Shown one piece after another: positions 13,332 through 60,210 of a DNA stretch of 64,000 bases. The position numbers and the translations under genes were made by a program. The notes beneath the pieces were generated by a model, which was not told where the DNA came from, made no database searches, and saw only the letters and a program-made list of their open reading frames with translations. Every line of letters begins with the position of its first letter. The stretch's first letter is position 1. This DNA is from Plasmopara viticola (Eukaryota; Oomycota; Peronosporomycetes; Peronosporales; Peronosporaceae), in NCBI GenBank assembly GCA_001695595.3, contig MBPM02000038.1, positions 434,001 to 498,000 of the forward strand, in the 5' to 3' direction.

Positions 13332-13373
13332 GGATAACAGCCGCAACAAGCTCAAGCAACGTTCTCGCCCAAT

Positions 13374-20442: not shown

Positions 20443-20532
20443 TTGCTGGATCCTGACCGGGACCAACGGGACAAACGCTGCGCCGCCCTGGCTGGCGTCC
20501 CGCAACAAGTATCCCCCGAGCTGCTTCTACCC

Positions 20533-21864: not shown

Positions 21865-22279
21865 ATCTCCATGTAATCCTGTACACTGGATGATGAATGC
21901 TGTGTGGTTGAGCGGATGTCCACGCTTTATCCAGATCAGCAGGATCTCGATCTTCAGACCGTTCTGGGAAAGCTGTGTCCAGACCAGGTGCAATTCTGGC
22001 TCAAGCTACGGCTGGCGGAAGCGGATCTGGCTCTGCAAATTATTGCACCCAGTATCTACGCAGACCCGCTTGAGCTGAGCGCGCTCACGGGGAAGGCAGC
22101 ATCGGCACTGCCCCACCCACTCTGGTTACTATGGGACGACACGACCCTTGCCAACTGAATAATGTTGCCCTTAGTGGACCGCATTTTGGCAGGGCCTATC
22201 CCGGTAGACCTTCGCTCCACGATTGAGGTTTTGAGAACCCAGGCTACTTCGGTAGCCCCCTCTAGTTCAACCCACCCCT

Positions 22280-42857: not shown

Positions 42858-43448
42858 ATGTCGACGTCTCGTAGTGACAAGCCAAAACGTCGACGCCACA
42901 ATTTTAAGCAGCCGATGACCAAAGACATGCCGCGTGTTTTGTCTGAATTGCTAAATGAGCCAAAGGTGGCACTTTTGCACCGCGTGGTAAGGAATATTGG
43001 GCCTAAATTGGCGTGGCGATTGTTGCGTGAAACGCTGCGGCTTGAGAAGGATGTTGGAAAGAGTGTGAACGCCGTGGCCCGCGGCAAACCCGAGCTTTTC
43101 TTTGTGGTAGACGAGGTTTCACACGAATACAAACCGCGGCGCCGTACGCCTGGAGATGTGTTTCTTGCGCTACTCAAGAAAAAGGTGCCGAAAGAAGTGT
43201 ATCGAACGATCTACGAGATGGAGGACAAGAAGAAAAAGGACGCTAAGAAGCGTGCTCGCAATCGCCAGCGACAGAGGATGGACCATACCTTGGCCAAGTT
43301 GGGCTTTGATGACCTAACACTTGCCTCAGATAATGGAAACCTTGTGGCTGACACAGCAATGATAGCCAAGGACGGTGAAGTAGCATGGGGTAGTGGTGGC
43401 AGAGCAAATGGTGATCGGCTGAGAAGCGGGGCAATGATAAAATTTTAA
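42858..43448 (+). CDS. PHAX RNA-binding-domain protein
   Basis: An intact 196-residue ORF with ATG at 42858. The core (residues about 25-115) contains LNEPKVALLHRVVRNIGPKL, LLRETLRLEKDVG and RRRTPGDVFLALLKKKV, the signature of the PHAX RNA-binding domain, which in other eukaryotes helps export capped small nuclear RNAs. A Lys/Arg-rich helix (KKKKDAKKRARNRQRQRM) follows. It is shorter than animal PHAX, consistent with a domain-only protist version. It is the only clearly intact host housekeeping-type gene in the window. PLV repeat sequence starts 130 bp downstream on the opposite strand. Confidence 0.75.
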   Translation: MSTSRSDKPKRRRHNFKQPMTKDMPRVLSELLNEPKVALLHRVVRNIGPKLAWRLLRETLRLEKDVGKSVNAVARGKPELFFVVDEVSHEYKPRRRTPGDVFLALLKKKVPKEVYRTIYEMEDKKKKDAKKRARNRQRQRMDHTLAKLGFDDLTLASDNGNLVADTAMIAKDGEVAWGSGGRANGDRLRSGAMIKF

Positions 43449-43496: not shown

Positions 43497-43817
43497 TTAG
43501 CATAATTTTAAGATATTCAAAAACCTTCCCCAAGGCTCGAAACTGAAGCTCGAGAAGCAAATTTTATATAGAATTTGTGACACCTCAGCGTTCTCACTCA
43601 TGACTGGAGTCATCTGCAATCGCGCTCGAAGCCAATCTTCAGCGCACATTGCGAACGAATCTTCGTAAAACATAAATTGCAGTGGCTTGCATTGTACGTC
43701 AAACTCTGAGTAACGCTGCGGCCAGAACGCTGTGTGCACCGTGTCTGCCAGTGTATACAGCGGTGGAATGTTTTGTATCATCAACCACGTTGCGTTTGTA
43801 CCAGTGGCCATCGGCAC
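43497..43817 (-). pseudogene. R1 repeat-family gene, left arm copy
   Basis: The frame carries PPLYTLADTVHTAFWPQRYSEF, then CKPLQFMFY and RARLQMTPVMSENAEV. The family similarity stops at 43581; the last 26 codons are unrelated flanking sequence. So the copy lacks its C-terminal third. Confidence 0.6.
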
Positions 43818-44081
43818 CTACGATGATTTCCTAGACCAATCACTTTGCTTGCACCTGTTGGAGATACTACCCTACATCGAAATGAAGTCTATGTGAGCAA
43901 TTTGACTACTGCGGTCTTAAGTCGCCTAAATCCATTCACTCTTTCTGTTGAAGTCAATTTAGTGTTCAAGCGCATATTGTATCATATACACTCCAGATTA
44001 TTGGACTACTGAACACTACTGTACATCATCGCTGTCTCTAAGGGTGTCTAAGGGTACTCTCGATGCTCTTAGATACGAAGA

Positions 44082-44104
44082 AGAGCGGACGATGAGCGGA
44101 CGAA
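44082..44104 (-). repeat. GTCCGCTCATC 11-bp tandem repeat, left
   Basis: On the minus strand GTCCGCTCATC is followed by GTCCGCTC. The right arm (59463-59491) has one more unit, and a degenerate version occurs at 39.20-39.235 kb. Confidence 0.7.
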
Positions 44105-44152
44105 AGGCATTCTTGCATATGGAATCAGACAAATATTTATCGTGCGAAGATT

Positions 44153-44698
44153 CTATTCTCTTCTATTGCTTCGTGATCTTCTTATGCATCCACAAATCAG
44201 GCTAAATCTGTATCCATACTGCTTTAGAATCACATGGACGAGAGCGATAATGACGCCTAGAATCGAGCAACTTAGAGCAACCAGTAAATACGAATCTAGT
44301 TCTCCTTTTTTGCTTTCGTGGGCGATAGTGAATTCGAACCTAGCAATCGCCACAGGCTGGAGAACGACTTCGAAGCTGTCCAAAAAAAATTAGTCATCAA
44401 CATGTTTCAAAAGGGAAACTAAAGAACTATATGCAGTACCTAATTCAAACCACGCGTTGCTTGCTTCGCGTGCATTCTTCATCAACTCGTTCGCATCCAT
44501 CAATTGCTGGTTCGCATCCCTCAGTTGCTGTTCTAATTGAAGCAAAGTACAGTCTAATGGGTTGTAATTGGGATGTCGAAATTTCCACTGATCAATATGA
44601 TTCTGTGCATCGTCTACATATCTCCCTGCTTCGTTATATCGACGCAGACACGCTTGTAGTCTTTCCTTATCAGTAGCTATGCGGTATTGATCGGCCAT
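44153..44698 (-). pseudogene. Spliced coiled-coil/membrane protein, left copy
   Basis: Exon 1 runs from ATG 44698 to 44440 and exon 2 from 44375 to 44153, with a predicted 64-bp intron (44439-44376: GTACTG...CTAAT...ACAG). It matches the intact right copy at 58843-59410. The first part is helical (LLQLEQQLRDANQQLMDANELM). The second has two hydrophobic segments. A single-base deletion just after the acceptor (TTCGAAG versus TTTTGAAG) puts exon 2 out of frame, so this copy is broken. Confidence 0.65.
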
Positions 44699-44712
44699 TG
44701 CTTTTCGCTGCT

Positions 44713-44909
44713 ATGTCTTCTGGCGGAAAGTTCGACAATGAATTAGAATTTGAACGCCATGGAAAACCGGTTTTGTACCGGCTTCTGCCGGATTCTGTCA
44801 CAGTGGCTCTAGATGCGAATACTGCGTGAGTATTTTTAATAAAACTCACAGATATTTACCAGAAAAAACATACCACGAGAAGGGCCGTCGTTTATGCAAC
44901 ATCTATTGA
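44713..44909 (+). pseudogene. Cys-rich small protein, left copy
   Basis: Starts MSSGGKFDNELEFERHG and ends with the conserved CEYCVSIFNKTHRYLP...LCNIY block, but these are in different frames because of a deletion of about 10 bases near 44.79 kb relative to the intact right copy (58828-58622). Its ATG is 14 bp from that of the divergent membrane gene. Confidence 0.55.
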
Positions 44910-44921
44910 ATTTGTGAGTAT

Positions 44922-45290
44922 TGTATTGTATTGTATTGTATTGTATTGTATTGTATTGTATTGTATTACGTTTTCGCGTTGCCAAGGTATGCACGTGCTA
45001 GGCTCAGTCTGGCTAGTCCACGGCATAGAGTGGTGTCCGCATACGTCGAGTCTCGTTCGGCGGGCAGTGCAGCCAGCACCGAGGTCGTGAGGGTCTTCCA
45101 TTATTTTGTGTAGCTCTGACTTGGTGAGAGCGCAGGTGGCGCTCTGGTGCTGGAGACCGTCGCGTCGAGGGTGAGAGGGTGAGACTCGTTAGAGACCTGC
45201 AGATGCCCGAGAGCACCTGCCCGAAGCGCGCGAGCATTTAGCCCCCGCGCTTGGAAGGAGGGCGTCACCCCAACCTTTTCCGTAAGAATG
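44922..45290 (-). mobile_element. SINE-like insertion with (TTGTA)n tail
   Basis: A 369-bp GC-rich block is present only in the left arm. It is flanked by the 9-bp repeat TGTGAGTAT at 44913-44921 and 45291-45299, and the right arm has a single uninterrupted site. On its minus strand it ends in about nine TACAA units (plus 44922-44966), a tail typical of some retroposons. No convincing A or B box was seen and it is unlike the SINE at 7.4 kb. It codes for nothing convincing. Confidence 0.8.
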
Positions 45291-45379
45291 TGTGAGTATG
45301 TGAGTATTTGCAATGGTCTTTTTTAGGCCCTCCATACATTTTGCTTTTTTTTCTACTACCCCTCCTAGTTCATATCTCA

Positions 45380-45435
45380 TATAGTAAATTTATCTGAATA
45401 CTCACATACTCACATACTCACAAATATTTACTATA
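45380..45435. repeat. Hairpin with three ATACTCAC repeats, left
   Basis: TATAGTAAAT (45380-45389) and ATTTACTATA (45426-45435) are perfect inverted arms around three tandem 8-bp units (45398-45421). The right arm has the same hairpin with four units. Confidence 0.8.
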
Positions 45436-45828
45436 GATATAAAGTTACTATATCAGCTATTGACATGCTCTAAGCGAAAGCTTTGTGCGTATTTTGCTTT
45501 TACTCACACTTTCGTCTAAAAACTATCTCCTATTGATATTAGATAAACCAAATTTTGTCTCGTTTATTGTTCTCTTGTGAGTCAAGACTTTTATGGACAT
45601 CCGCGACACATCGAACATGAAGCGTTTGCTAATGCGACTTACGCTGGAGCGTTCCAGACTGCGACATCATAAAAAATGGTGATCTTAAGCGAAGAATATA
45701 TAAGATATAAAAAAGCATATGCTTAATAATATAACAAATATGGGACTTTACCAAGAGCAACGGAGAATAGTGCAAGCTTGCACGAAACAAAGATAGATGC
45801 GGCAAACACCAGATAATTGCGGATGATA

Positions 45829-48091
45829 TACCTTCTCAAGTAAGCACTCCAGCTACTTTTGAAGCTGTTGATACACCAGAGTTATCGGAGGTTAAGTCCG
45901 TCGAGGTCTCGAATGTCGAAGAAAGCAAAGCTCCAGAATTGGATGAGTCGAATGTCGCACCGGCGATCGCGGACAGTGTGTGATATAAGGAGAAACACAG
46001 TTCAAATTGGGAAGAATTAAATAATTGGATTGATGAGGATGAGAATAATTTCTTCTTTAAATATTACGTTGAACCGCAACAATTCATTCAGTACAAGGTA
46101 AAAGATGAATTGAAGCAACACCCACTTGGCATTTCCGCTACGATAGACACCTTCGAAGAATACATGCTTGATAATGATGAAATTTACGCATCTAAGAAAC
46201 TGAATCATGATGCTTACTCATGTGGATATCGATACTGCCTCTACATCCAGCAGGGCGACAAAACATTGTTTCATTTCTATTGTTAATCGAGGCAAATGAT
46301 GGAGAATATTCGAATCGACTTGTCTGAGATTGATGTTGTCAAACATTCCCTTGACAAAAAGAAGAATGACAGACAATCGTTTCGTCTCTGTTCGGTACTT
46401 CCAAAGTCTTAGTTCCATATGGCGACGAAAACGCATGTTGATATTCATGAAATGGCAAGAACATATCTGCGTATTGAAATCAAAATTTTCACATTTGGAG
46501 ATGAACTTAGCAATCGTTGAGTTCCGGATCCACCATTTGAAGGGCTAACCATTAAAAGGAACTTACTAAACTACACTGAAGCAAATTGTGAGCGGACACA
46601 ACCATGAAGAATACAAGGAATGGAAAGCCAAGTACGAACGACAAGAAGTAAAAGGAAAAAAAGACGACAAAGCCAAAGAAAAGAAAACGCCTTTGGATAT
46701 TCTTTCAAAAAAGCTGATTGATCTCGTCAAAGACAAATATAAGCGAGAGTTTCAATCTGGTGCCATTCATGAGAAGATGCTTCCGTATCACTGTGTTCGT
46801 ATAAACGATGATCCCGCTACGTTTCTATTTTAGTCTTTGCAACTGAACTTCTGTTTCATATGTGCAAATCCCAAGATCACTAGCAACTACTTTACTTCAT
46901 CAAAAACATCATCAATCCTAACTTTGAGTTCATCAACCTTGACTACAACTACATTGGATTCAAGAATGTTATCTACGATCTGTCTAATGCCACGTTTATT
47001 CCGACCGCTGATATCGAAGAGAATATCCAAGTTCGAACATATATTGACTCGAAATTAGAGATTGACAATGACTAGGCTCCTCTACTTGATCAGTACTTGA
47101 AATTTTAGTTCGATGCTGAGACTTTCAAGTTAATCTTTTTCAAGATTGGTCGCCTGATGGATAAGCCAAATGATGAATTTGATTTTGTGGTATTCCGATT
47201 TGGTGAAGGCGGACCAGGCGAATCACTTATAATGAATCTAGTGAAGTATTCAATTCCTCACGATCAGTTTTTTTTTACTCAATTCTCATCAAGAGCACTT
47301 CGGATTGTCTGATTATGCTAAGAACTTTTTTTAAGCTATAATGATATGAATAATCTTGCTAAGACTCTACCAAAGGCTGATTTCTTGAGCATGGGAACGC
47401 GTGGTTTACTTCAATGACCTATAAAAGGAAAAGGTTCGATTTCAGTCCATGACTGGGATATTCCAACTATCATCAATAGCAGCAAACTACCAAACTCCAA
47501 AGATGAATCCGGCGAAGTAGTCCGTCGTGTCATGGTTGCTATTTTTGAGAAAATCAATCTTTGAAGAAAGTAGGAAGGCCAATCTTGAGAATGAGATCAA
47601 AACGAGGCATTTGGCGTCTTTCTACACCGCTGCCGATCAACCTATCTGAGCTTTTGTTCCAAAGACAAGAACAAAGGAGTGGAGACGTTCTGCCCGATAT
47701 CGTTCGTTGAGAATTGCAACCTTCTTCAAATGACTACGAACAACACTTAAGAATTCATCTCCTAGAAGTGCAAATACCAAAAGGGTGCTTCTATCTCTGT
47801 TCCTTTTTTTAACAAAGCTTTGAAAGCGTATATCAAGAAAAATCATGAGATGAAACAAAAACCAAGGATTCAATCAATATCTCGAATATTGTTCTTGTTG
47901 ATAATAGATGTGTAGAGAATAAATTAAACATCTGTAAGAGTTGTCGGAAGGAACACAAAAAAGGATGCTGCGATAAGTACGACCGCCTTATTCGATCAAA
48001 ATCTCATGCTATTCAAAATATTACGTTCTCATATGGGATTTCTGATGATGATCAGTCACATGCGCGAAGGAAAAGAAAACGATTGAGTTAA
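45829..48091 (+). pseudogene. PLV primase-helicase (AEP-like plus D5/SF3)
   Basis: An acidic Pro-rich lead (45.83-45.98 kb) is followed after a TGA by EELNNWIDEDENNFF. Then HVDIDTA (46.22 kb) and RQSFRL...FGDEL suggest an archaeo-eukaryotic primase core. The D5 helicase part spans 46588-48091: LDILSKKLIDLVKD, APLLDQYLKF, a P-loop reading GEGGPGES (47202-47225) where family members have a Lys before Ser, then GTRGLLQ, IKGKGSISVHDWDIPTIINS and NICKSCRKEHKKGCC, a zinc-binding end. At least six stops or frameshifts. The enzyme primes and unwinds viral DNA. Confidence 0.75.
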
Positions 48092-48099
48092 TATCACAC

Positions 48100-48624
48100 C
48101 TACTGGGTTGATTGAGCTTCCATCCATCTAATATTCTTTTGAGATTTGAAGTGATATGTTATGCCTCTATAGTGATAATGACTACCGCATTCACAGGAAA
48201 GCTTCGCGACAAGTCTCTCCTTGTTGAGTTCATTGTATGTCTTGTTTCTCTCATTCACCACTTCTTTGTTGGCTTCCAAGCATTTCTTTGTATTTACTTT
48301 TTGCTTTTGCTCTTTCAGCAGCCCAAATGGAGGTACCTTATTCCCACAACTTTTCTTGAATTTGTTGATCCATAACGTTTTATAAGCGCGCAGCTGATTT
48401 CTATCAGCAACCTCATACTGCTTGATCAACATAATTTTGAACTCATACGGACCATACTTTCGAAAGTATGGATAAGTTGCAATTTCAACGGATAGTTTCC
48501 CGTAATACCAACGCTTAAAATAAAACCGATGCCCACTCATACGATGCTTGAGTTGATTAAACGTGCTACCAACGTATCAAATTTCGCTTTGACTTCAAAC
48601 GATTTTATAAACCGAATCGATCAT
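48100..48624 (-). pseudogene. GIY-YIG endonuclease with C-terminal zinc finger
   Basis: ATG at 48624. The frame reads through two TGA codons before YVGSTFNQLKHRMSGH, the second half of the GIY-YIG motif with its Arg helix. It then has YFRKYGPYEFKIMLIKQYE and NQLR, ending with CECGSHYHYRGITYHFKSQKNI, a C2H2-like finger common in viral members. From 48540 down it is uninterrupted. Both TGA codons could be CGA (Arg) that suffered C-to-T change. It is expected to nick DNA for integration or repair. Confidence 0.75.
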
Positions 48625-48668
48625 GCCTGACTATTGTTATACTATATTTTAATAAATATCAAACATAT

Positions 48669-49133
48669 CTAAAGTAATCCAAGTCGAAAACCTCCACGAC
48701 GAGTCATAGGAGCTGCTATTCCAACTCCTGTGAATTGTCGCACACCCTTTCGAATTTCGTGACTGAAACCACCATTTTCTGGGCCAGTGAGATCGGCAAT
48801 CTTGTCGAGTGCGGTTCCAACAGTTGATATTCGGTAACCATTGAGGAATCCACCAATGCTCTTAGAAGTAGATTTGATTCCATTCCACAAACTTCCCCAG
48901 AACCCACTACCACTAAGTCCTGGTTGATTAGAACGTAAAGCTTTTCCGTGATACATATGTAGTGTTGTCATTTTGCCCACTTCGTATGCCTTCACCAACT
49001 TCTTGTAGATTTCAGGATGGAAATAATGTGTGTGGCCTCTGTTCAATTGAGCATGACTCAAGCTAACGGAATTGCCATGTAGAACTTTAACAGCGTGCGC
49101 ATGACTCAAATCGACGGCAAATTCCTTGTACAT
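48669..49133 (-). CDS. PLV virion-type small protein (intact, 154 residues)
   Basis: ATG at 49133, no internal stop. The N-terminus has AVKVLHGNSVSLSHAQL, then HYFHPEIYKKLVKAYEVGK. The middle is Gly-rich and amphipathic (SGSGFWGSLWNGIKSTSKS), followed by a basic tail ending GGFRLGLL. Proteins of this plan (a short KL..G..VxLS..QL start and an amphipathic Gly/Trp helix) recur next to capsid genes in Polinton-like elements and are thought to be minor core or membrane-active components. Assignment is by pattern. It is one of the few intact genes in the core. Confidence 0.5.
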   Translation of the reverse strand: MYKEFAVDLSHAHAVKVLHGNSVSLSHAQLNRGHTHYFHPEIYKKLVKAYEVGKMTTLHMYHGKALRSNQPGLSGSGFWGSLWNGIKSTSKSIGGFLNGYRISTVGTALDKIADLTGPENGGFSHEIRKGVRQFTGVGIAAPMTRRGGFRLGLL

Positions 49134-49245
49134 CTAAATTGAAAATCTGGATTACTTATGTACAAAGCTAGAGAGAAAAATGTCGAATTTTAATAAATCT
49201 AAAAACGCAGTCTGGATGAAATTAAAATAATATTACTCGTGATAT

Positions 49246-50503
49246 CAGAAGGGAAAGCGAGTATGATAATTTGTCAGACACTACGGTAAATCTATACATT
49301 AGACAACTGATCAAGCTTTAAAAGCTTAAAAAGGCCGGCGTTGCGAAACAGCAATAGTCCCCAAATGAGTCCAGCTCCAATATCCAGTATCTAAAGAAAT
49401 ACGACGATGCTTCGTTTCAAAAGACGTTTGAAGTTCGGAAGTCGAGTTTCATTGCACTTCTGATGAGCATCTATAGAAGTAAAGAGAGTATCAAACTAAC
49501 AATGAACGCCATATGTAAAATGGTCAAGAACAGATTTCGTGATGCATTCGGATATTACAATGCAATTCGAAAGGAACTTAGTAAGCAAAACAAAGCTGCA
49601 AAGCTGGACAACGAGCTAACACCAGAGGAAGGGAAGAAGTATATCAGCTATGAAGAGCTGATGTTCGTCCTGGGTAAAGCTGCAAAGGTACTCAACGAAA
49701 CGTATGGTAAAGTCTTTATGTCTCGAGCCGAGTTTGAGTAGCTAGCAAAAGCAAAGAGAACTGATTACTTAAAGCTTGTGTTTGATTACATCACGCTGTG
49801 GTTGAACGTGCATTATCCACTTCGTTTGGTATGACCGAGCGTTCTTCTCAATTCGAAAGAAGGTGCGAATTACCTCCAAGGTAACACACTGCACTTAAAC
49901 GATTTCAAGAATGTTCGTCTTATAGGACCACAAACGATTCAATTGGATAATACATCGATGACCTTGATTAGAGTCGTATCTCGAGTTCTTGACTAATACA
50001 GTTGGAGAGCATTCTACTAAACTACTATGGCGGATTTTCAATCGACAGCCAGGTGAGTATGGTTATACCAACTCAAGCAATAGCTTTAGTCAGGTTACAT
50101 CAAAGCTCTTCGTGAGGTACAATGGAAAGTTAATGTCAATGAATACGATCAGACACATTGCTGAGTCTCATTTGATTTAATCGCCAACATATGCGTAACT
50201 CACCAATCGAAAAACGATCTACATGCCAAACTACTCCACAGCACCATGGCCGCTAATACGAGCTATAACGAGATTGCAAACCGAGCGAATGCTGCCGAAG
50301 TATCGTTTGAACCTGGCGATTCATACGATCACGCACTTAAGCCTCCTGCAGGTCCCGACACACCTCCTTCTACAAATTCCACCGCAAAGCCCACGGCAAT
50401 GCCCGTAAGCAGACCTAAAGACCGGCGAAAGAGCATATTCCGTGGTGCCTTTACACCTACTGGTAGTGACAAGACGCATAAGATCAACATTTTTGAGAAA
50501 TAA
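49246..50503 (+). pseudogene. Tyrosine recombinase
   Basis: The N-terminal core-binding region is EYDNLSDTTVNLYIRQLIKL (49.26 kb), then KKYDDASFQKTF. The catalytic domain starts in 49463-49741 and continues in other frames: LHLNDFKNVRLIGPQT, GKLMSMNTIRHIAESHL with the Arg-His box (about 50149-50157), and LLHSTMAANTSYNEIANR with the nucleophile Tyr at 50264-50266. A Pro/Ser-rich tail ends at 50503. Stops at 49.32, 49.35 and 49.74 kb and two frameshifts break it. Such recombinases integrate PLV genomes without a transposase. Confidence 0.7.
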
Positions 50504-50531
50504 TGTTACTATTATAACATACAAAGCGATC

Positions 50532-50930
50532 ATGGAGCAAAGACAAAAGAGATCATATCGCAAAGCTGGTCCATTCCATGTGGAATTCCATGGACTTCAA
50601 GCCTGTTTAAGTAGTGACAAATCCAGCGTATATATCAAAGCAATGCTGGTATCTCATGCATTTGTAAATCTCTGGCGAATGATCGAAGAGGATGAAAGCT
50701 TTGACAAGGCTTTGTTTGACCATCTCGACGAGCATGAGCGGGACTATATGAAATACTGCTTGAATAGATGCAAAATTTCTTCACGAGGGTTTGAAAGTGC
50801 GTATAACCAACTTCTCAATGGATTAGTAAAACGCTTGAAGATGCTATAAGGCGCGAAGAATATTGGTAATGACTATCCATTGATAGAAACGGAAATGAAG
50901 TCGATTTTTAATAAATTATATGAAAAAAAT
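50532..50930 (+). pseudogene. Small helical PLV protein
   Basis: ATG at 50532. 105 residues read KAGPFHVEFHGLQACLSS, then LDEHERDYMKYCLNRCKISSRGF and NQLLNGLVKRLKML before TAA at 50849. A shifted frame continues GAKNIGNDYPLIETEMKSIF. The R-L-K-L-L..GA-N-IGNDNP-like C-terminal phrase recurs in short ORFs of Polinton-like elements. Function unknown. Confidence 0.5.
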
Positions 50931-50939
50931 GTATTTTCA

Positions 50940-51200
50940 GTATCATACCACAGCCAATTTTAGCGTCTAATGAAGCTTTAGATCTCTTAGACTAGCGTTT
51001 GAAGTTAAGCAGCTTTGAAGCTCCAATGTATTTTGGTGCCGTCTTCTTTTTTTATTCCTTCGCCATGTGGCTGACGTTAACGTTTTGGAGCTGATTGATA
51101 GTGTTTCAATATTCGTCGAACCGTAGTCGTTTCTGAATGGCGCAACAGGTTTCGAGTGATCCACCTTGCCTGATCCATCGATCTCCATTGCCTAAGGCAT
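50940..51200 (-). pseudogene. Small basic PLV protein, element B copy
   Basis: The start by homology to 1-139 is ATG 51200, with TAG at codon 3. From 51188 the frame reads MEIDGSGKVDHSKPVAPF, and after a shift NVSHMAKE, KKKTAPKYIGASKLLNFKR. Divergent from the penton-like gene, with a TATATAAAAG box between (about 51.25 kb). Confidence 0.4.
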
Positions 51201-51244
51201 TAATTGTCGTCGAATTTTCTTTCGACAATTTTTTTTTCTGTTGG

Positions 51245-51270
51245 ATTATATATAAAAGTAGATAAAATGA
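51245..51270 (+). promoter_or_regulatory. Putative TATA box of the penton-like gene
   Basis: TATATATAAAAG lies about 50 bp upstream of the coding start at 51303, in the short space between divergent genes. Seen once; not tested against other PLV promoters. Confidence 0.35.
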
Positions 51271-51302
51271 GCTTTCCAATTCTGTTACATTTATACAATT
51301 AA

Positions 51303-52109
51303 GTGGCTAATCATCAGTTCCGATATCGATTCCCGCAGCCTATCGACTTTAGTCAGTATAAAATTGCATTAGGATCAATATCCATCTACTATTCGTGGCG
51401 AGCAATTACTGCTCAGCGTCAAAACAATAGCTTCACGATCATATGGCCAACTGCTTCTACTACGACGACATACACGATTACGCTCCCTGATGGCACATGC
51501 TCGGCAAGCGACATCAACAACTACCCCCAATATTGGTCAAACAATCTCTTTTTGATCAGCAATACGACAGGAACACACTACTGTTTCAATTCATGCGCTG
51601 AGAACCCATCGAGTAATGACCTGCGGTTTAGTATGCAATCAGTCAGGAATATCGCTTGATACACTGCTGCTAGCGGATTTCCAACGATGCCAGCTACTGC
51701 ATACACGCCTCAGCTCTAAGTAGGTAACTTTGCCTTCGGGTCTATCGTTGGATTCAGCCCAGCTACGTATCCTGCCGCTCAAACAAGTGTTTATGCAGTC
51801 AATAACAACTTAGTGCCTCAGGTACATCCGACAGCTGCTGTCGTGATCACTTATTCAGATCTTCACAATCCAATCGCGAATAATAATCAAGTGCTGCACA
51901 CATTAACTTCTGCTGGGGTTGAGTATGAGGGGCTCATAACCATCTCACAGGGACAAGGATTAGCCTACTGCCCAATGCAGGGTACTAATTCGGAACTGAC
52001 CTTGTCATTTCTAGATCAGAACATGATCCCGCTTGGTATTATTGATAACAACGTATGTATTCGTTTGTTGATTAGACCAAAAAAAGGTAGTAGTGAACAA
52101 TTTCACTGA
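51303..52109 (+). pseudogene. Penton/minor-capsid-like protein, element B
   Basis: One frame runs the whole length with only two stops, TGA 51657-51659 and TAA 51717-51719. N-terminal: RYRFPQPIDFSQYKIALGS, SIYYSWRAI, NNSFTI, then TLPDGTCSASDINNY. C-terminal: NSELTLSFLDQNMIPLGI then IDNNVCIRLLIRP. This pattern is widespread in Polinton-related loci of animals, fungi and protists and fits a beta-rich virion protein, probably penton or minor capsid. The first codon is GTG, as in copy 1. Confidence 0.7.
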
Positions 52110-52128
52110 CGTTTACTAACTTCTACTT

Positions 52129-52755
52129 TTACAAGTCGAATACATGCTCAATGACATTGCGATATACTTTTCTATCAGTGATATCCATCAGCATCATCTT
52201 CTCTGACGTAGTGCGTTTGTAGAGTTCAATGAATGTTTTGATCGGAATATCAGTGGTGAAGTCGCGACAGATAATACCAAGGTCTCGTTGAATAAAATTA
52301 CGACCAAGAATTACGTACTGAGAGTTAATTTGGATGGTTTTTGGGATTCCAAAATAGCTTTGCAAAATATAGATCATCGACCAGGACTGCTTACGTCCTC
52401 GGATAAAACTCTGGGAAGTTTGAGCTTGAGTTTTCTTTGGTTTTAAAACGAGGTCATCAAAGATAATCAATTTGCTCGTTTTAGGGTCGTATTTGCTTAT
52501 TGCTCGGGCCATTTCTTCTTTGATCTCCTGGACATTGTCGATATTTTCTTTGAGATGATCATACAGTGTCTCGTTGTGCATGTTACAATCTTCGTGAAGC
52601 CTTTGCTTAGAAGTGCAATTATAAATGAAACGGTAAATGACTTCCCTGATCCACTGGGGGGGCACGCACATTCTAAAGGGCAGCTCAAAGTGAACATTCT
52701 TGGGGAACCGCTTTGGCTTTGACTTCGGGATACACTCATAAAAGTTTTGCATCAT
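52129..52755 (-). pseudogene. FtsK/HerA-type genome-packaging ATPase
   Basis: Frame 52755-52129 gives the N-terminus, the Walker B block SKLIIFDDLVL (about 52.45-52.47 kb) and the C-terminal helical region. The Walker A motif PPSGSGKS is in the -1 relative frame (52739-52497), reached through a run of seven G at 52656-52662, and the frame must change back about 50 bp later. A32-like ATPases of this kind pump DNA into PLV and NCLDV capsids. The two opposite shifts suggest compensating errors, either mutational or from sequencing of the G-run. Confidence 0.8.
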
Positions 52756-52773
52756 ATAGTATAGTGATCGAAA

Positions 52774-54749
52774 ATGTCTCTGCCTCCAACAATCAATTCT
52801 CCTCTATTCAATAGCTCTTACTTTAGCTCATCCGATGGCTACGTTACTTTAGCTACAGGAGATCAAAGATATTTGAGACTTGGCGAAGTAGGAACGCTCT
52901 CTGCTTTTAATGTGATTGGCAATATGAATTGCGGCTCACTGACGATCAACGGATCAAGTTTGGATCTGTCCGGCCTTGGTTATGCTACTGGAGTTACTCT
53001 CGGTGCCGCCAATGCAAGCAAAGCGCTTGTTCCTGATCCAAGCAGCAATATTAGCGGTATTAATAATCTATCAGCTGCAAGCATTACCGGAACAATTCAA
53101 ACAGCTGCTCAGCCAAACATTTCGTCGATTGGAAGTTCGGCAACTCATACAGTCAATGCTTTACAAAACGCTAAGTTAGCAAATTCTGTAATAGTCAAGG
53201 CCAATGCAAGCACGTGGGGAAATTAAGTTGCAAACGGAACAGTTCGATGCGGACTTGCAACTAATGGTTGGAGTGGAACACAGTCGAATCAGAATACTGT
53301 TATCGCAACTAACAACACGGCCAGAATTACTATCTCGTCAAGTGGGAATATTACCGTTGCTGATACCATTTCTGGATTACAATTAAATCTAGGTTCAACT
53401 GGAATGGGTCTACATATGCCAGACTTAACATTTAAAGGAACTACATTCCCCGATACCTACTACACTGGCATTACTCTAGGTTCAGGTTCAGCTTCAAAGG
53501 CACTGGTATTAAATTCAACGTTAGATTTGTCTGGGGTCAATAATATTTCAATTTGTGGGGCCTTTATAGCTTCTACATCAATGGCATCACCAACCTTAAC
53601 GGTTGATACGATCAATACGTCCGCTGTCCTCAACATCAACTACACGAATTTGAATTAAATGGAGCGGCATTGACATCAACTGCTGCTAAACTCGATTACA
53701 ATGATGTCATCACATTGGGAACGTTTCAATCGTCTAAGACAATGACACTGGATAGTTCGGGTGTCGGGCTAATGCCTCTAGAACGTCGAATACTATATCT
53801 TTGCGTTTCTATGGCGGAACTACAAATTGTGAGACTATGAACATTTGTAGAGCATCTGATACAAATGGATTGGTCATTGCATCGAGAACAACATCAGGAT
53901 CAAACAACAAAACGTATCTGGTGTTAAATTCAATATCAACCGACAATCCGAGTGAATTTGTCGGGGGCGTTTCAGCTACAAGTGAAGATTTATTCAATAT
54001 CAATTGGAATGACAAGCCATCCGTCGGTTCCACGTCTCAAACGCATAGATTTTGTTTCAATGTTGAAGATACATAACCGTACAAGAGTGGTTTCCCTCAT
54101 ATATACATCCTTGCTACCTCAGCGGATGCTTTTTGTATGAATCTTTCCGGATCGTCGCCTACATCAACAAGTGGTTGTCTTCACCTTGTTTCTGATGCTG
54201 TTAATAATATAATATTTATAACCAATACGCCATACACTAGTTCATTTGGGACTGCTTCTCTCACATTCTAAAAATGTTTATATCAAAGCATCTAACGCAC
54301 TCAATGACGGAACTGCCAACTATGGTATGGGCAAATCGTGGTGGCGGGCCTTTTACTCTAACAAACATCTCAGCTTCTTCTGGTGGTAATATTTACATTC
54401 AAGCTGGTATATGGGCTACGTCTGATCGTCGATAGAAAGTGGATATTTAGGAAATCGATTTACCATTTGAGCGTTATAAGGATCTTGAACCGGTTAATTA
54501 TAGCTATAAGAATGAAGCTGAAAAAAGAGTTGGTTTGATAGCTCAAGATGTTATGCGTGTTTGCTCAGAAGCAATTACGATGATCGAAAATCAAAATTTT
54601 AAAGATGAAGAGGAAAACTTACCGGAGGGAGTTCAATTATGCTTTGATTACAATGCTATAACGATATTATTAATATCATTAAAAAGCTAATTGATCATGT
54701 CGAAAAACTGGAATCGACTATAAAAGAAATAGTGCATTTAGTTCAATAA
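52774..54749 (+). pseudogene. Fibre protein with peptidase S74-like C-terminus, element B
   Basis: ATG at 52774. N-terminal virion-anchor region, then repeats of the type INNLSAASITGTIQTAAQPN and GLGYATGVTLGAANASKAL (repeated near 53.47 kb as GITLGSGSASKAL), as in trimeric fibres. The C-terminal 110 residues read TSDRR, then EIDLPFERYKDLEPVNYSY, RVGLIAQDVM and a final coiled coil (KLIDHVEKLESTIKEIV). This is the intramolecular chaperone that trimerises fibres and cleaves itself off. Stops or shifts near 53.22, 53.66, 54.08 and 54.43 kb. Likely binds the host cell surface. Confidence 0.75.
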
Positions 54750-55752
54750 AGATTCCGTCGAGCAAGCCTTTTAATTCAGCTTTGTATTGACCCATTGCAA
54801 CTTGAGACATTCGTCGATTTGTTGGAGGACTGGAAGCATCATTTTTAAAGTATTGTTTTTCTCTCCGAAAATTCACAGGGTCTTGAAACGCTCTTCCAAC
54901 ATCTTTATGCAGTTGTTTTCCGAATAGACTGTCGTATTTATCGATCGTTTTGGTATATACTCTTTTTGTGCCAGGATTTAGTGCAGGCAATCTCCATTTT
55001 TCTTTCATCTCTTCGTCATCACTACTCTCCGCATCATCCGAGTCTTGAAAGAGGTGTCGAGTAATCAAGGGTTCCTCCTCAGCTCGTTTAGCAGCTTCTT
55101 TTGTTGCTCGTTTGTATGGGGGAGTTGCAGTTCGTTTTCGTTTCGGAAGTTTCTTCGATTCTTCCATGACTTTGTCAGCAAACTTACTAGCCACTTCTTG
55201 GCGTCTCCGGTCTCGTCGGAATTCTCTTTGTTTGTTAAGATAATTTCGAATATGGTCATCTACCACCCGTCTCAAAGTTTTTTCCCCTTAATGTATGCTC
55301 GCGCATTGATAGCCTTTTGGGCAGCGTCATTTACTCCTCTGTAGAAATCGTCGGATAAATCTTCAGGTGCAGTGGGCTCTTCCATACTAATATCTGCGTC
55401 AGCTGATTACAAAACGTACGTATGCTTCTTTTTACTCGCTTTTGGAATTTCATGTGCTTCGCCTTTGATGATTTCTGGAGGCCCTTTGGGACCTTTGAGC
55501 AGTTTCTTCGTGATTTGATCATAGTCGTACTCACGATTCTTAGTCATCACCTGCTGAAACAAATTCGCAAGTGAACCAGCACATGCATCATCCAACGACT
55601 CAATTTAAATGAGTGCCTTAAGCTTCTTGACTTGGACAAAATCACTCTTCGCCATTGTATTGTAATAGCGATCATATGCCTTTTGCTTGGTCTGATTATC
55701 GGAGAAAAAGCCCTCATGATTAATTTTGATTAGACCACATATAGTGAACATG
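54718..55752 (-). pseudogene. Unknown basic PLV protein (about 340 residues)
   Basis: Start ATG 55752 (MFTICGLIKINHEGFFSDNQ). One frame continues through TAA at about 55.61 kb into DDACAGSLANLFQQVMTKN and then EEPTAPEDLSDDFYRGVNDAAQ, and shifts frame at an A-run near 55.28 kb. The C-terminal 185 residues are Lys/Arg/Glu-rich with a coiled-coil look. It lies between capsid and fibre genes and overlaps the fibre 3' end by about 30 bp, a position suggesting a virion scaffold or DNA-binding role. Not recognised. Confidence 0.45.
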
Positions 55753-55777
55753 ATTAAGAAAATGTGGTTGAATAGAA

Positions 55778-57413
55778 TTACATTATGAAGTTGTCAAGAT
55801 CAGCCTTGGACTGATCCTTGCGATACCGTGCCCATAGCCGTAACAACACTTGCAACGGCTTCACGCAATACGTGGTAATACATCGTGAGAGCGTAGTTGC
55901 AGTTGGAGGTACCAGACACGATAATACTCTTACTGACACCACCTTCACTTGGAAGGCGACGACCAATATCAACCGCTACAAATCGACACAGTGATTTCCA
56001 TTGACGCTGAGATAGCAAAGCAGCTGAGGTAACATCATCAAGATCACCGTCACAGCCTGACTTTGACATATCTTGTGAGAACAAGTCATAACCGAAACTG
56101 ACAGGATTTTTCCAGATAGGGACGTTTCCAACGGTGATCTGCGGAATTTTCAATGCTTGAAAATGGACTTATCGTCGTTGAGACCGTCGAGAACGGACTA
56201 CGGAATGGATTGATCGCATCTGATATGGTAGCAGCTGCCGTTGGATTGGTAATAACAGGTTGCATGATCAAACGTTTTGGATTAGCAATGCCATTGCTGA
56301 CCGTCCAAGTGAAGAATGCGCCTGAAGCAACAGCGAATTTATTTGTGATTCGTTCGAAGTAGCGGAAGGTTTTCTTCTAAGCAAATGCATGGTCAGCGCT
56401 TGGATCAGGCGAGTATGTAGGAACCAAGAGACGCGAAAACGATTGCGATGGAGTGATGCCGGTACCAGTAGTTGAAGTACCATTGACATCGGCCGTGATC
56501 GTAAGAGTGACCGAAGACGCTGGTAGAGCAAAATCACCGGCCATAACAGTTGTCGTTACACCACTGGTCAAATTTCAAAGGACTGGACAAGTGTTTCCAA
56601 AATTCATATTATTGTTCAAGCTAGCAATAGTAGCAGGCGCGACAACGCCAGCAGTACCTGTTGAAGCCAAAGTAGTAGATGAACTGGTGCAATTGACGTA
56701 TATGAAACCGCGCGTATTTTTTGCATTGGGCATTTCTTGAAGTAGTCACGAATATGCCGCAGTTTGATGCAAGCCAGATAATGCGCGACGTAAAATGGCG
56801 AACCAGTAGCCACGGCGCCAGCAGGAGCAACGTAAACTTGAGGTTTCGACACGGCTTGAATGTTTGCACTACCTTTTATAACATCGAATGCAAGTTTCGA
56901 ACTCTGTTGGTCAAGAGCGGTAAAGAGCGATCGTTCAGCAGCTCCCCGGTTCGAGTAGGTGTTAGCCAATCCAAACTCACCGATGCTGTTTGTAGCTGCC
57001 ATAAAGGACGAAGTGGCCGAATTATCAAGTGATTGCGCTGCTCCGCTTGACCCTTGACTCATCGGCGTGGCAAATTATTCTAATAATAAACTGCTAGTTG
57101 GTCCATGCTTGACATGCGTGTTGTAATCCGTTTCAGTCAGAGCCTTGAAGGTGGTATTCACATTCTCATGAACCTAATTCGTTTGCACAGTAGTTTCGTC
57201 AATAACAACCTGAACACTGTCAATGAGTCGCGATGCTCCAGACTTATGTACCAATTGATTAATAGTACAGGCAGCAGTCGAAGTGACAGAACCAGCACCG
57301 CCATTACGAATTTGAAGCTTGACAAGCAACTCGATGACAGCTTCTTCCCAATTCACAAACACGGCTTGAGACGAGATGGAAGAAAGATTGATTAAATTGA
57401 AATTATCCGGCAT
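55778..57413 (-). pseudogene. Major capsid protein, element B
   Basis: ATG at 57413. Blocks in order: NLINLSSISSQAVFVNWEEA, GASRLIDSVQVVIDETTVQ, then after a shift SFMAATNSIGEFGLANTYSN with ALDQQSSKLAF, then TRGFIYVNCTSSS-like sequence, SVTLTITADVNG, SQSFSRLLVPTYS, GNVPIWKNPVSFGY, and finally RRLPSEGGVSKSIIVSGTSN and NYALTMYYHVLREAV. About 500 residues, the usual length of PLV double-jelly-roll capsid proteins, with late Tyr-rich strands. At least five frameshifts. It differs from the element A capsid. Confidence 0.65.
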
Positions 57414-57498
57414 ATTGACCGGTGTTAGATGTAAAATCCTGAACTTAGGTCCGTTTCTTATCCTTAAAGAGCGTCTCAGCTGGAGCAGGATCAACGGA

Positions 57499-57591
57499 AT
57501 GCTCGAAACAGAAATATCGGAAGCAGAATTATGTGATTATATTGATGACGATTATATAATACTTGCCAAAAAAATAAAGCACCATATGTGA
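57499..57591 (+). pseudogene. Short ORF before the protease
   Basis: MLETEISEAELCDYIDDDYI and a basic end, 30 residues; acidic and unlike flanking frames. It may be the N-terminus of the protease frame after a shift, or a separate remnant. Confidence 0.25.
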
Positions 57592-57595
57592 AAAA

Positions 57596-57964
57596 ATATT
57601 TATTAAATTGGCTAGAACGACGGATGATCAACTCATGCAACTAGCCAATTTCCTTGGCGGCAAAGTAGATCAAATTGATTTCAAGCAGCAATTAAATAGA
57701 AACAAGGATTACTGTATTCTTAAAATGGGAACGCCTCAGATCGGCGGGACGCATTGGTCAGCAGTTTAAAGCAAACATAAGACTTACTTTGACCCCCTCG
57801 GCTTGCCAAGACCACGTGATACACCAAAGTTTTATTCCTATCGCGAAGTTGATATTCAGGACCCTCGATTTGGCCACTGTGGGCAGTACTGCGTCCTGGG
57901 GCTTTACCATCTACAGCACAATAAAGGAAATGAATTCTATGAGCTCTTCAAAGGCCAGCAATAA
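57596..57964 (+). pseudogene. Adenain/Ulp1-like cysteine protease
   Basis: A single frame has TTDDQLMQLANFLGGKVD, then GTHWSA (catalytic His codon 57752-57754), one TAA (57767-57769), KTYFDPLGLPRP with the Asp, and FGHCGQYCVLGLYHLQH with the catalytic Cys. This His-Asp-Cys order is that of adenovirus-type maturation proteases found in nearly all Polintons and PLVs. The single TAA three codons after the His block is the only break. About 120 residues remain, short for the family, so the start may be lost. Confidence 0.8.
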
Positions 57965-57997
57965 TACAAACTTACTTTGTTCTAATATACACAAGCA

Positions 57998-58213
57998 ATG
58001 AATGTTGTATATATTGAAACGCACGAGCCAGAGCCGATTTGCATTAATGAAAACTACTACGCATGGCCAACTCCCAAATCAAAGCCAGAAGTCATAGTTG
58101 AGTCAAAACTTACTTTGGATAACTTAAATCGCATCACCAAGAACACTTCTCCAGCCAAGGTTTATATAGTGGAAGTACCATCCCTTGCCCAGTTGCGCGC
58201 TAAGTATCAGTGA
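57998..58213 (+). CDS. 71-residue ORF at the right end of the core
   Basis: ATG at 57998 (MNVVYIETHEPEPICINEN), uninterrupted to TGA at 58213, ending AKVYIVEVPSLAQLRAKYQ. It follows the protease by 33 bp. Not recognised. Intact, unlike most neighbours. Confidence 0.4.
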   Translation: MNVVYIETHEPEPICINENYYAWPTPKSKPEVIVESKLTLDNLNRITKNTSPAKVYIVEVPSLAQLRAKYQ

Positions 58214-58465
58214 ATTTTATCATCTTTTTTATGATGTCGCACTCTGAAACGCCCCAGTGGAAGTCGCAATAGCAAACGGTTCATGTTCGATGTGTCGCGG
58301 ATGTCCATAAAAGTCTTGACTCACAAGAGAACAATAAACAAGACAAGGTTTTGTTCATCTAATATCAATAGGAGATAGTTTTTAGACGAAAGTGTGAGTA
58401 AAAGCAAAATACGCACAAAGCTTTCGCTTAGAGCATGTCAATAGCTGATATAGTAACTTTATATC

Positions 58466-58529
58466 TATAGTAAATATTTGTGAGTATGTGAGTATGCGAG
58501 TATGTGAGTATTCAGATAAATTTACTATA
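58466..58529. repeat. Hairpin with four GTGAGTAT repeats, right
   Basis: TATAGTAAAT (58466-58475) and ATTTACTATA (58520-58529) flank four 8-bp units (58480-58511; the third reads GCGAGTAT). Tandem short units inside a palindrome resemble iteron-type origin or terminator structures; no function is proven. Confidence 0.75.
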
Positions 58530-58621
58530 TGGAATATGAACTACGAGGGGTAGTAGAAAAAAAAGCAAAATGTATGGAGGGCCTAAAAACGACCATTAAA
58601 AATACTCACATACTCACAAAT

Positions 58622-58828
58622 TCAATAGATGTGGCATAAACGACGGCCCTTCTCGTGCAATGTTTTTTCTGGTAAATATCTGTGAGTTTTATTAAAAATA
58701 CTCACGCAGTATTCGCATCTAGAGTCACTGTGCAATGTCAAGATAGAATCCGGCAGAAACCGGTACAAAGCCGATTTTCCATGGCGTTCAAATTCTAATG
58801 CATTGTTGAATTTTCCGCCAGGAGACAT
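58622..58828 (-). CDS. Cys-rich small protein, right (intact) copy
   Basis: ATG at 58828, 68 residues. An N-terminal MSPGGKFNNALEFERHG is followed by a central CEYCVSIFNKTHRYLP and an end with a third conserved Cys (RRLCHIY). CxxC with a downstream His and Cys suggests zinc binding. The gene is divergent from the coiled-coil/membrane gene, with the two start codons 14 bp apart. The copy in the left arm is frameshifted but keeps the Cys/His block. Family not recognised. Confidence 0.5.
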   Translation of the reverse strand: MSPGGKFNNALEFERHGKSALYRFLPDSILTLHSDSRCEYCVSIFNKTHRYLPEKTLHEKGRRLCHIY

Positions 58829-58842
58829 AGCAGCGAAAAGCA

Positions 58843-59410
58843 ATGGCCGATCAATATCACATAGCTACTGATGAGAAAAGACTACAAGCGTGTCTGCGTC
58901 GATATGACAAAGCAGGGAGAGATGTAGACGATGCGCGGAATTATGTTGATCAGTGGAAACTTCGACATCCCAATTACAACCCATTAGACCGTGCTTTGCT
59001 TCAATTAGAGCAGCGACTGAGGGATTCGAACCAGCAATTGAAGGATTCGAACCAGCAATTGATGGATGCAACCGAGTTGTTGAAGGATGCACGCGAAGCA
59101 AGCAACGTGTGGTTGGATTCAGGTACTGCATATAGTTCTTTAGTTTCCCTTTTGATACATGTTGATGTCTAATTTCTTTAGGACAGCTTTTGAAGTCATT
59201 CTCCAGCTTGTGGCGATTGCTGGGTTCGGATTCACCATCGCCCTCGAAAGCAAAAAAGGAGAGCTAGACTCGTATTTACTGGTTGCTCTACGTTGCTCAA
59301 TTTTAGGCGTCGTTATCGCTCTCGTCCATGTGATTCTCAAGCAGTATGGATACAGATTTAGCCTGATTGGTGGATGCATAAGAAGATTACGAAGCAATAG
59401 ACGAGATTAG
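58843..59410 (+). CDS. Coiled-coil, two-pass membrane protein with predicted intron
   Basis: Exon 1 is 58843-59122: a polar start with YHIATDEKRLQACLRR and a coiled coil with a repeated LRDSNQQLKDSNQQL unit. Exon 2 is 59187-59410: two hydrophobic segments (VILQLVAIAGFGFTIALES and LLVALRCSILGVVIALVHVIL) and a basic tail. The 64-bp intron 59123-59186 has GTACTG, a CTAAT branch site at 59169-59173 and ACAG. Splicing joins the two open frames in phase, giving about 167 residues. Function unknown; a membrane-anchored helical rod is suggested. Confidence 0.6.
59123..59186 (+). other. Predicted 64-bp spliceosomal intron
   Basis: GT...AG with a CTAAT branch site 13 bp before the acceptor, a usual layout for oomycete introns. 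The same length and signals occur at 44439-44376 in the left arm. Confidence 0.6.
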
Positions 59411-59462
59411 AATCTTCGCACGATAAATATTTGTCTGATTCCTTATGCAAGAATGCCTCTCT

Positions 59463-59491
59463 TCCGCTCATTGTCCGCTCATCGTCCGCTC
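59463..59491 (+). repeat. GTCCGCTCATC 11-bp tandem repeat, right
   Basis: Two and a half units (TCCGCTCATT, GTCCGCTCATC, GTCCGCTC). The left arm has one unit fewer. A related motif follows the same AAGAATGCCT word at 39.2 kb. Confidence 0.7.
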
Positions 59492-59755
59492 TTCTTCGCA
59501 TCTAAAAGCATCGAGAGTACCCTTAGACACCCTCAGAGACAGCGGTGATGTACAGTAGTGTACAGTTGTACAATAATCTGAAGTGTATACGATACAATAT
59601 GCGCTCGAACACTTAATTGACTTCGATAGAAAGAGTGAATGGATTTGGGCGACTATGACCGCAGTAGTTAAGATGCTCACATAGACTTCATTTCGATGTA
59701 AGGAAGTATCTCCAACAGATGCAAGCGAAGTGATTGTGCTAAGAAATCATCGTAG

Positions 59756-60210
59756 GTGCCGATGGCCACTGGTACAAACGCAACTTGGTTGATGATACAA
59801 AACCTTCCACCGCTGTATACACTGGCAGACACGGTGCACACCGCGTTCTGGCCGCAGTATTACTCAGAGTTTGATGTACAATGCAAGCCACTGCAATTTA
59901 TGATTTATGCTATCACGCGCAGAGGAGACAGAGCCATGACAAAAAAACGATGGTTCACGAAGAACCGTTCGCATTGTGCGCTGAAGATTGGCTTCGAGCG
60001 CGATTGCAGATGACTCCAGTCATGAGCGATAACGCTGAGGTGAAAGCCACTGATTCTGTGCTGACAATTCGCGGCAAGCAATCGACAGTAGAGCTTGCGG
60101 TTTTGTCAGAATTCGAGCCGGCGGTGGATACTGATCCACCAATTCAAAAGCTTAATAGCTGCGAGTATCTGGAAGCGCCCATGACCACGTGCGATGTCTG
60201 CTCCTTTTGA
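59756..60210 (+). pseudogene. R1 repeat-family gene, right copy
   Basis: 59756-59940 carries PPLYTLADTVHTAFWPQYYSEF and CKPLQFM. An insertion of about 50 bp absent from both other copies then breaks the frame, which resumes at 59950 with FALCAEDWLRARLQMTPVMS and continues to 60210 with a C-terminal third lost elsewhere (VLTIRGKQSTVELAVLSEFE, LEAPMTTCDVCSF). This is the only copy that preserves the C-terminal part. Confidence 0.5.

What the first reader, a model, noticed from the sequence alone, without database searches (positions are those of the whole stretch)
43581..60042. Nearly complete endogenous Polinton-like virus in an oomycete genome
Capsid, penton-like, packaging ATPase, protease, fibre, primase-helicase, GIY-YIG nuclease and tyrosine recombinase all lie in 12.5 kb between inverted repeats. 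The replication set (primase-helicase plus recombinase, no polymerase B) marks it as a PLV, not a Polinton. Motifs are seen in the sequence; the family assignments follow from known PLV gene sets. The exact virus lineage is probably new, which is inference.
Basis: partly seen in the sequence, partly recalled or inferred. Interest (0 to 1): 0.88.

Follow-up and report, generated by a model that had tools for sequence, protein, structure and literature searches.

The report
Decayed Polinton-like virus in downy mildew
The genome of the grapevine downy mildew carries a broken copy of a small DNA virus, one of dozens of related copies in that genome, of a virus group already known to invade water-mould genomes; it is an ordinary member, with some unusual details at its ends.

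Summary
The window lies in Plasmopara viticola. The element is an endogenous Polinton-like virus of the Gossevirus (GKS1) group, already published from many oomycete genomes. It has remnants of a double-jelly-roll capsid, A32-type ATPase, adenain-like protease, S74-type fibre, GIY-YIG nuclease and (weakly supported) primase-helicase; no polymerase B was found on this contig. The recombinase and penton calls rest on position and recalled motif only. The true ends, marked by a terminal motif shared with other copies, are about 44,021 and 59,553 (15.5 kb); the outer 440-490 bases on each side are host DNA in inverted duplicate. The arms of its terminal repeat differ by K2P 0.07. At least 66 places in the genome have a capsid match. 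A copy 74 kb upstream is 98.9% identical inside the element, while identity falls to 90% and less outward in the flanks, so host recombination, not the virus, most likely made it. More interesting than the element itself: related copies share the virion block but differ in helicase and terminal-repeat modules, and in two of them both terminal repeats carry a nuclease-like gene.

The parts
44021..59553 (.). endogenous Polinton-like virus, decayed, true extent about 15.5 kb
   Evidence: terminal motif at 44024-44056 (+) and 59518-59550 (-), shared with ends of other copies
44021..45676 (+). left terminal inverted repeat (viral part)
58225..59553 (-). right terminal inverted repeat (viral part)
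44949..45286 (+). dispersed repeat of about 335 bases inserted in the left terminal repeat; absent from the right arm
   Evidence: 88-93% identical copies in the fetched stretches of C61, C13, C66, C21, C14
43581..44020 (.). host flank, inverted duplicate of 59554-60042, outside the virus
59554..60042 (.). host flank, inverted duplicate of 43581-44020; the host unit continues to about 61807
45704..48000 (+). primase-helicase remnants in several frames; D5_N just under cut-off at 46884-47072
   Evidence: D5_N E 0.0011, 19.6 bits, cut-off 22.4; related DNA on 8 other contigs
48100..48576 (-). GIY-YIG nuclease remnant
   Evidence: 70% (C3) and 73% (C14) identical to frames of other copies; the C3 frame hits PF01541, E 4.8e-7, the C14 frame does not; nor does the window piece
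48669..49133 (-). 154-aa open frame, possible minor virion protein (assignment recalled, no profile hit)
49358..50503 (+). probable tyrosine recombinase, broken
   Evidence: conserved in other copies; motif recalled; no integrase hit in Pfam or PHROGs
50409..50849 (+). conserved open frame of unknown function
51303..52109 (+). probable penton/minor capsid protein, two pieces
   Evidence: position and conservation in other copies; no profile support for the window pieces or the C13 homologue
52129..52755 (-). packaging ATPase, broken into two frames
   Evidence: homologous frame of C13 hits Pox_A32, E 1.4e-6; window piece phrog_2666 terminase, E 6.7e-5
52768..54690 (+). fibre-like protein with C-terminal chaperone, several pieces
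   Evidence: Peptidase_S74 E 1.7e-7 at 54451-54687
54718..55287 (-). conserved 189-aa open frame, function unknown
55334..55793 (-). two conserved short open frames
55800..57536 (-). major capsid protein, broken into pieces in several frames
   Evidence: best match of each of four pieces 82-90% to the oomycete capsid family; fold of the family is double jelly roll
57578..57964 (+). adenain-like cysteine protease, interrupted
   Evidence: 71-75% identical to the C13 frame, which hits Peptidase_C5, E 6.9e-5
57986..58213 (+). conserved short open frame next to the right terminal repeat
58831..59172 (+). orphan open frame in the right terminal repeat (second copy 44390-44710 minus strand)
   Evidence: no relatives found

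Best explanation
A dead endogenous Polinton-like virus of the Gossevirus (GKS1) group in Plasmopara viticola. The ancestral virus built a double-jelly-roll particle, packaged its DNA with an A32/FtsK-type ATPase, matured the capsid with an adenain-like protease, copied itself with a primase-helicase and was inserted by its own integrase, most likely the tyrosine recombinase (functions inferred from homology). It was inserted at the edge of a repeated host unit on scaffold C38. After insertion its genes decayed. Host recombination then did the rest: an inverted duplicate of the right host flank now lies on the left side, and a whole copy, 98.9% identical, sits 74 kb upstream as part of a duplicated, probably gene-converted host region. 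Shown: gene content (helicase, recombinase and penton weakly), ends, breaks, copy number as a lower bound, divergence pattern. Inferred: which integrase acted, order and mechanism of the host rearrangements.
Against: Recombinase and penton have no profile support, and the window helicase is weak (D5_N below cut-off). Some stops may be assembly errors, as PMC10120064 warns for such elements; the two near-identical copies share breaks, but short-read polishing could also spread errors between them. No clean target-site duplication was established. 26 of the 42 motif places are unpaired, and the fetched copies C3 and C21 have no motif hit at 3 mismatches. One of the six host-unit loci taken as comparison (C38:368.8-371.6 kb) holds another Polinton-like remnant about 1 kb from the junction.
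Confidence: 0.9

Rival explanations
1. A Polinton/Maverick transposon with protein-primed polymerase B and a retroviral-type integrase that lost those genes.
For: Oomycete elements of the Gossevirus group with polymerase B and rve integrase are in print (PMC7805220); in this genome two contigs have a polymerase B match about 9 kb from a capsid match (C205, C33).
Against: No polymerase B match on C38 among 40 in the genome; the place is filled by a helicase module that recurs on other contigs; the one rve hit seen in the window belongs to a Copia-type element at 14.6-16.3 kb.
Confidence: 0.04
2. A virophage (Maveriviricetes) proper, dependent on a giant virus.
For: Capsid fold nearest Sputnik and mavirus by Foldseek; gene set overlaps virophages, as published for Gosseviruses.
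Confidence: 0.03
3. The element is kept by the host as a defence against giant viruses or for a nuclease, rather than being plain debris.
For: Endogenous virophages mitigate giant virus infection in Cafeteria (title and start of abstract in the listing); some relatives carry a nuclease-like gene family with many open copies in the host genome.
Against: Every large gene of this copy is broken; its arms drift apart.
Confidence: 0.04
4. The reader's ends 43581 and 60042 are the real viral ends, and the outer 440-490 bases are viral.
For: The inverted repeat runs to these points, and divergence of outer and inner parts is equal (K2P 0.076 and 0.070).
Against: Other copies end at the shared motif; the outer part occurs on C38 and C4 without this virus beside it.
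Confidence: 0.08

Closest known systems
Gossevirus (GKS1) group Polinton-like viruses in oomycetes (Bellas and Sommaruga 2021, PMC7805220; Bellas et al. 2023, PMC10120064)
   Same: host group, size, terminal inverted repeats, capsid fold class, cysteine protease, endonuclease, helicase-primase plus tyrosine recombinase in part of the elements
   Different: copy with broken genes; host-flank inverted duplication; a text search of the two main texts found no 'Plasmopara'
Phytophthora water mold MELD virus (deposited name, P0038)
   Same: capsid homologue, 61% identical to the P. viticola C66 capsid
   Different: other host genus; only its capsid was compared
Sputnik and mavirus virophages
   Same: capsid fold, overlapping gene kinds
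   Different: no sequence-level capsid match seen
Polinton/Maverick
   Same: capsid, ATPase, protease, terminal repeats
   Different: no polymerase B on the contig; no retroviral integrase seen in the element

Membership tests
Polinton-like virus, Gossevirus group | Gossevirus-type double-jelly-roll major capsid protein | tested here: met
   oomycete capsid family, fold; the group name rests on the papers' statement that oomycete capsids are of this group; no published Gossevirus sequence was aligned by name
Polinton-like virus, Gossevirus group | A32/FtsK-type packaging ATPase | tested here: met
   homologous frame of the C13 copy; window piece, terminase profile
Polinton-like virus, Gossevirus group | cysteine protease in many members | tested here: met
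   C13 copy; window pieces 71-75% identical to it
Polinton-like virus, Gossevirus group | primase-helicase | tested here: inconclusive
   window D5_N just under cut-off; copies C13 and C61 clear, DUF5906
Polinton-like virus, Gossevirus group | tyrosine recombinase (or rve integrase) | tested here: inconclusive
   conserved frame with recalled motif, no integrase profile hit
Polinton-like virus, Gossevirus group | penton/minor capsid protein | tested here: inconclusive
   no relevant hit
Polinton-like virus, Gossevirus group | terminal inverted repeats, about 14-40 kb | tested here: met
Polinton/Maverick | protein-primed DNA polymerase B | tested here: not met
   40 matches in the genome, none on C38
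Polinton/Maverick | retroviral-type integrase inside the element | not tested
   no dedicated rve scan; none of the element's pieces scanned against Pfam hit rve
Virophage (Maveriviricetes) | virophage-type capsid by sequence | tested here: inconclusive

The most novel reading that the evidence does not exclude
Oomycete Gosseviruses are built as a fixed virion block with exchangeable ends: the block from the GIY-YIG gene to the protease stays, while the helicase and the terminal repeats are swapped between lineages as modules. In several lineages the terminal repeat carries a PD-(D/E)XK-like nuclease gene, hence two copies per virus, drawn from a family that also expanded in the host genome. 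A terminal repeat can moreover be lengthened with host DNA, as at this locus, which would let a virus pick up host genes in duplicate. (That replication and capsid genes of PLVs have separate histories is already reported for cryptophyte PLVs, PMC12220804; the terminal-repeat part is what would be new. I lowered the interest from 0.5 to 0.4 for that reason.)
Probability: 0.3. Interest if true: 0.4.

Novelty: new member of a known kind. Interest (0 to 1): 0.28.

Why it matters
As a single element it adds one decayed copy to a published group. The genome around it is more useful: a contiguous long-read assembly with dozens of copies of different age lets one read integration, decay and host-driven copying apart, and see that helicase and terminal-repeat modules change while the virion block stays. 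The nuclease-like gene in both terminal repeats of some relatives is a lead on what these viruses carry and on gene flow between them and downy mildews.

Tried and rejected

Considered and rejected: that the near-identity of the two C38 copies shows recent viral transposition. The flanks are duplicated too, with identity falling outward, so host duplication or gene conversion is simpler. That the 335-base extra piece in the left arm is viral: it is a dispersed repeat. That the orphan terminal-repeat frame is an effector: no evidence at all. A target-site duplication: most ends share a palindromic GTAC that cannot be told from a duplication (read by eye).

Limits: only 8 copies in all (window, C38 upstream, C61, C13, C66, C21, C14, C3) were read beyond the capsid gene, of at least 66 places with a capsid match; one search scored 80 of 402 candidates and one search scored 40 of 121, so counts are lower bounds, and some places are short fragments. 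Ka/Ks pools pieces; the ATPase pieces overlap in two frames and inflate the distances; the C38-upstream value (0.80) is dominated by them and was not used. Arm divergences are not dated, for want of a rate. The pairing of ends used 41 pasted positions out of the 99 capsid rows; the one empty pair (C5) stays empty against all 99 rows as printed.
Full report
WHERE IT IS. The window is G000:C38:434001-498000 of a genome of 92,937,831 bases in 358 contigs; C38 is 706,521 bases long. The published Plasmopara viticola assembly has 92.94 Mb, 358 scaffolds in the text (passages of PMC6660063), 359 scaffolds and an N50 of 706.5 kb in the abstract (listing with start of abstract).

WHAT IS THERE. The inverted repeats at 43581-45676 and 58225-60042 are real, 89-97% complementary in nine blocks. 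Profile evidence: fibre chaperone Peptidase_S74, E 1.7e-7, in the window itself; ATPase: Pox_A32, E 1.4e-6, in the homologous frame of copy C13, and a terminase profile, E 6.7e-5, with the window piece; helicase: DUF5906, E 1.9e-17, in copy C13 and 2.5e-15 in copy C61, but only D5_N at E 0.0011, under its cut-off, in the window; GIY-YIG, E 4.8e-7, in copy C3 but not in copy C14 or in the window piece; Peptidase_C5, the adenovirus protease, E 6.9e-5, in copy C13. The recombinase frames gave no integrase hit in Pfam or PHROGs and the penton frames no relevant hit. Those two names rest on gene order, conservation among copies and, for the recombinase, a catalytic motif that I recall.

THE TRUE ENDS. 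Five other copies (C61, C13, C66, C14, C3) have inverted repeats of their own that enclose 16.2-16.9 kb; in C21 none was found. Their ends share a conserved stretch of some 70-100 bases. Its core was found at 42 places in the genome with up to 3 mismatches, against 0 for the reversed control. Sixteen of the 42 form eight inward-facing pairs 10.6-17.0 kb apart, and 7 of the 8 pairs enclose a capsid match; 26 are unpaired. In the window the core lies at 44,024-44,056 and 59,518-59,550, so the virus is 15.5 kb long. Outside it, 43581-44020 and 59554-60042 are inverted duplicates of each other and belong to a host unit (59602 to about 61807) with 23 matches, 19 of them on C38. Six other copies of this unit (five fetched, one in the window at 8827) continue past the junction with sequence shared among themselves and not with the virus end; one of the six (C38:368.8-371.6 kb) has another Polinton-like remnant about 1 kb further on, with capsid and protease matches at 68-70%. 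These loci stand for the site without this insertion. A simple insertion would leave different host sequence on each side; here the same host sequence lies on both sides in inverted orientation. The divergence of the two host flanks (K2P 0.076 in the window, 0.070 upstream) equals that of the viral arms (0.070 and 0.082). The simplest reading, inferred, is one event that copied terminal repeat and flank together, for instance repair of a broken left end from the right end through the inverted repeats. Insertion in the middle of an older host palindrome with later gene conversion is the alternative; the upstream copy does lie in a larger inverted arrangement (further arms 69-93% identical).

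A SECOND COPY MADE BY THE HOST. C38:403982-419516 is the same element. Over 44,021-59,553 it is identical at 15,338 of 15,505 compared bases, 98.92%, with 64 gap columns. In 500-base bins the stretch 43.5-59.0 kb has 96.0-99.8%; to the left 39.0-43.5 kb has 92-98%, 36.5-39.0 kb 91-94% and 32.0-36.5 kb mostly 82-90% (one bin of only 47 bases 100%); to the right, from 59.0 kb, identity falls from 95 to 90%, so the drop begins inside the right terminal repeat. The host flanks are therefore older duplicates, and the element was most likely copied between them later by host recombination or gene conversion. Both copies have the same capsid break points (residues 48-273 and 268-459 of the query), and the window has one more stop.

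DEAD, BUT FROM A LIVE LINEAGE. Against six other copies the pooled Ka/Ks is 0.58 (C61), 0.36 (C13), 0.26 (C66), 0.49 (C21), 0.27 (C14), 0.22 (C3): the lineages were under purifying selection, as working viruses, before they decayed. Repeat-arm divergence ranges from 0.013 (C13) and 0.019 (C14) over 0.040 (C66) to 0.070-0.072 (C3, C61), so insertions are of different age. PMC10120064 warns that stops in such elements can be assembly errors; 7% divergence between the arms is hard to explain by a few such errors, but single breaks could be.

HOW MANY. The capsid search printed 99 matches that fall into 66 places on 36 contigs with a 3-kb rule; only 80 of 402 candidates were scored. PMC10120064 gives up to 299 capsid copies in one oomycete genome. 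Polymerase B of the protein-primed type has 40 matches in this genome, none on C38; two contigs (C205, C33) have one about 9 kb from a capsid match, so Polinton-type elements with this capsid may coexist, as in PMC7805220.

MODULES. DNA similarity between the window and other copies covers most of 48.1-58.2 kb in C61, C13, C66, C14 and C3, and part of it, rearranged, in C21, plus a short piece near 45.7-46.0 in five of the six (not C66), but not the helicase region; of the terminal repeats only the end stretch and short pieces match. The window-type helicase has relatives on C30, C75, C1, C76, C110, C31, C58 and C2, the C13-type on others. Terminal repeats differ too: in C14 and C61 both arms carry a gene of a family with 61 homologues, the named ones oomycete, some titled 'Restriction endonuclease domain' by UniRef, and 109 matches in this genome, many open and clustered on C10. 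Its conserved pattern looks to me like a PD-(D/E)XK nuclease of the Uma2 kind (recalled; no profile hit). The window's own terminal repeat has instead an orphan frame without relatives.

IN PRINT. Oomycete Gosseviruses, including five with helicase-primase and tyrosine recombinase, are described in PMC7805220 (passages) and PMC10120064 (passages). PMC12220804 (passages) reports for cryptophyte PLVs that polymerase and capsid trees disagree, so exchange of replication genes is not new in itself. For a nuclease gene in terminal repeats of oomycete PLVs I made one search (5 papers with 3 of 4 terms); the passages seen in two of them mention endonucleases but none placed in a terminal repeat; the other three were not opened for this. 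A search for Plasmopara viticola together with Polinton found no paper, and text searches of PMC7805220 and PMC10120064 found no 'Plasmopara'; their supplements could not be read, and the second covers 245 oomycete genomes, so this genome may be in its tables. Verdict: a new, decayed member of a known kind.

Noticed in passing
window 37038-38970 and 61906-64000: Two stretches, inverted to each other (83%), that match the terminal repeats and helicase region of other Polinton-like copies (C61, C14, C3); remnants of further elements on both sides of the main one.
   Followed up: partly
window 35-976: Remnant similar (63.5%) to the penton region 51095-52054 of the main element; a further Polinton-like fragment at the window's left edge.
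   Followed up: no
L029:4251-5144 (C14) and L015:4524-5348 (C61): Terminal repeats of two other copies carry a gene of an oomycete family some of whose members UniRef titles 'Restriction endonuclease domain'; present in both arms, and 109 matches in the genome with a cluster of open copies on C10.
   Followed up: partly
L020:6696-7295 and L018:4560-5135 (C13): Both terminal repeats of copy C13 carry another open frame (192-200 aa) without a relevant Pfam hit; a third kind of terminal-repeat cargo.
   Followed up: no
window 42798-43448: Host gene fragment with a PHAX RNA-binding domain (E 2.4e-13) directly left of the element; it is part of a repeated, partly inverted host region on C38.
   Followed up: partly
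window 13338-17073: Copia-type LTR retrotransposon (gag, integrase, reverse transcriptase).
   Followed up: no
window 20311-25917: LINE-like element with endonuclease and reverse transcriptase in a stretch of higher GC (52-56%).
   Followed up: no
C205 and C33 of G000: Protein-primed polymerase B matches about 9 kb from a Gossevirus-type capsid match; possible Polinton-type elements in the same genome.
   Followed up: no
window 44949-45286: Dispersed repeat of about 335 bases, found at 88-93% identity in or near five other Polinton-like copies and near a host unit on C4 (94%); perhaps a small transposon. Its frequency elsewhere in the genome was not measured.
   Followed up: no
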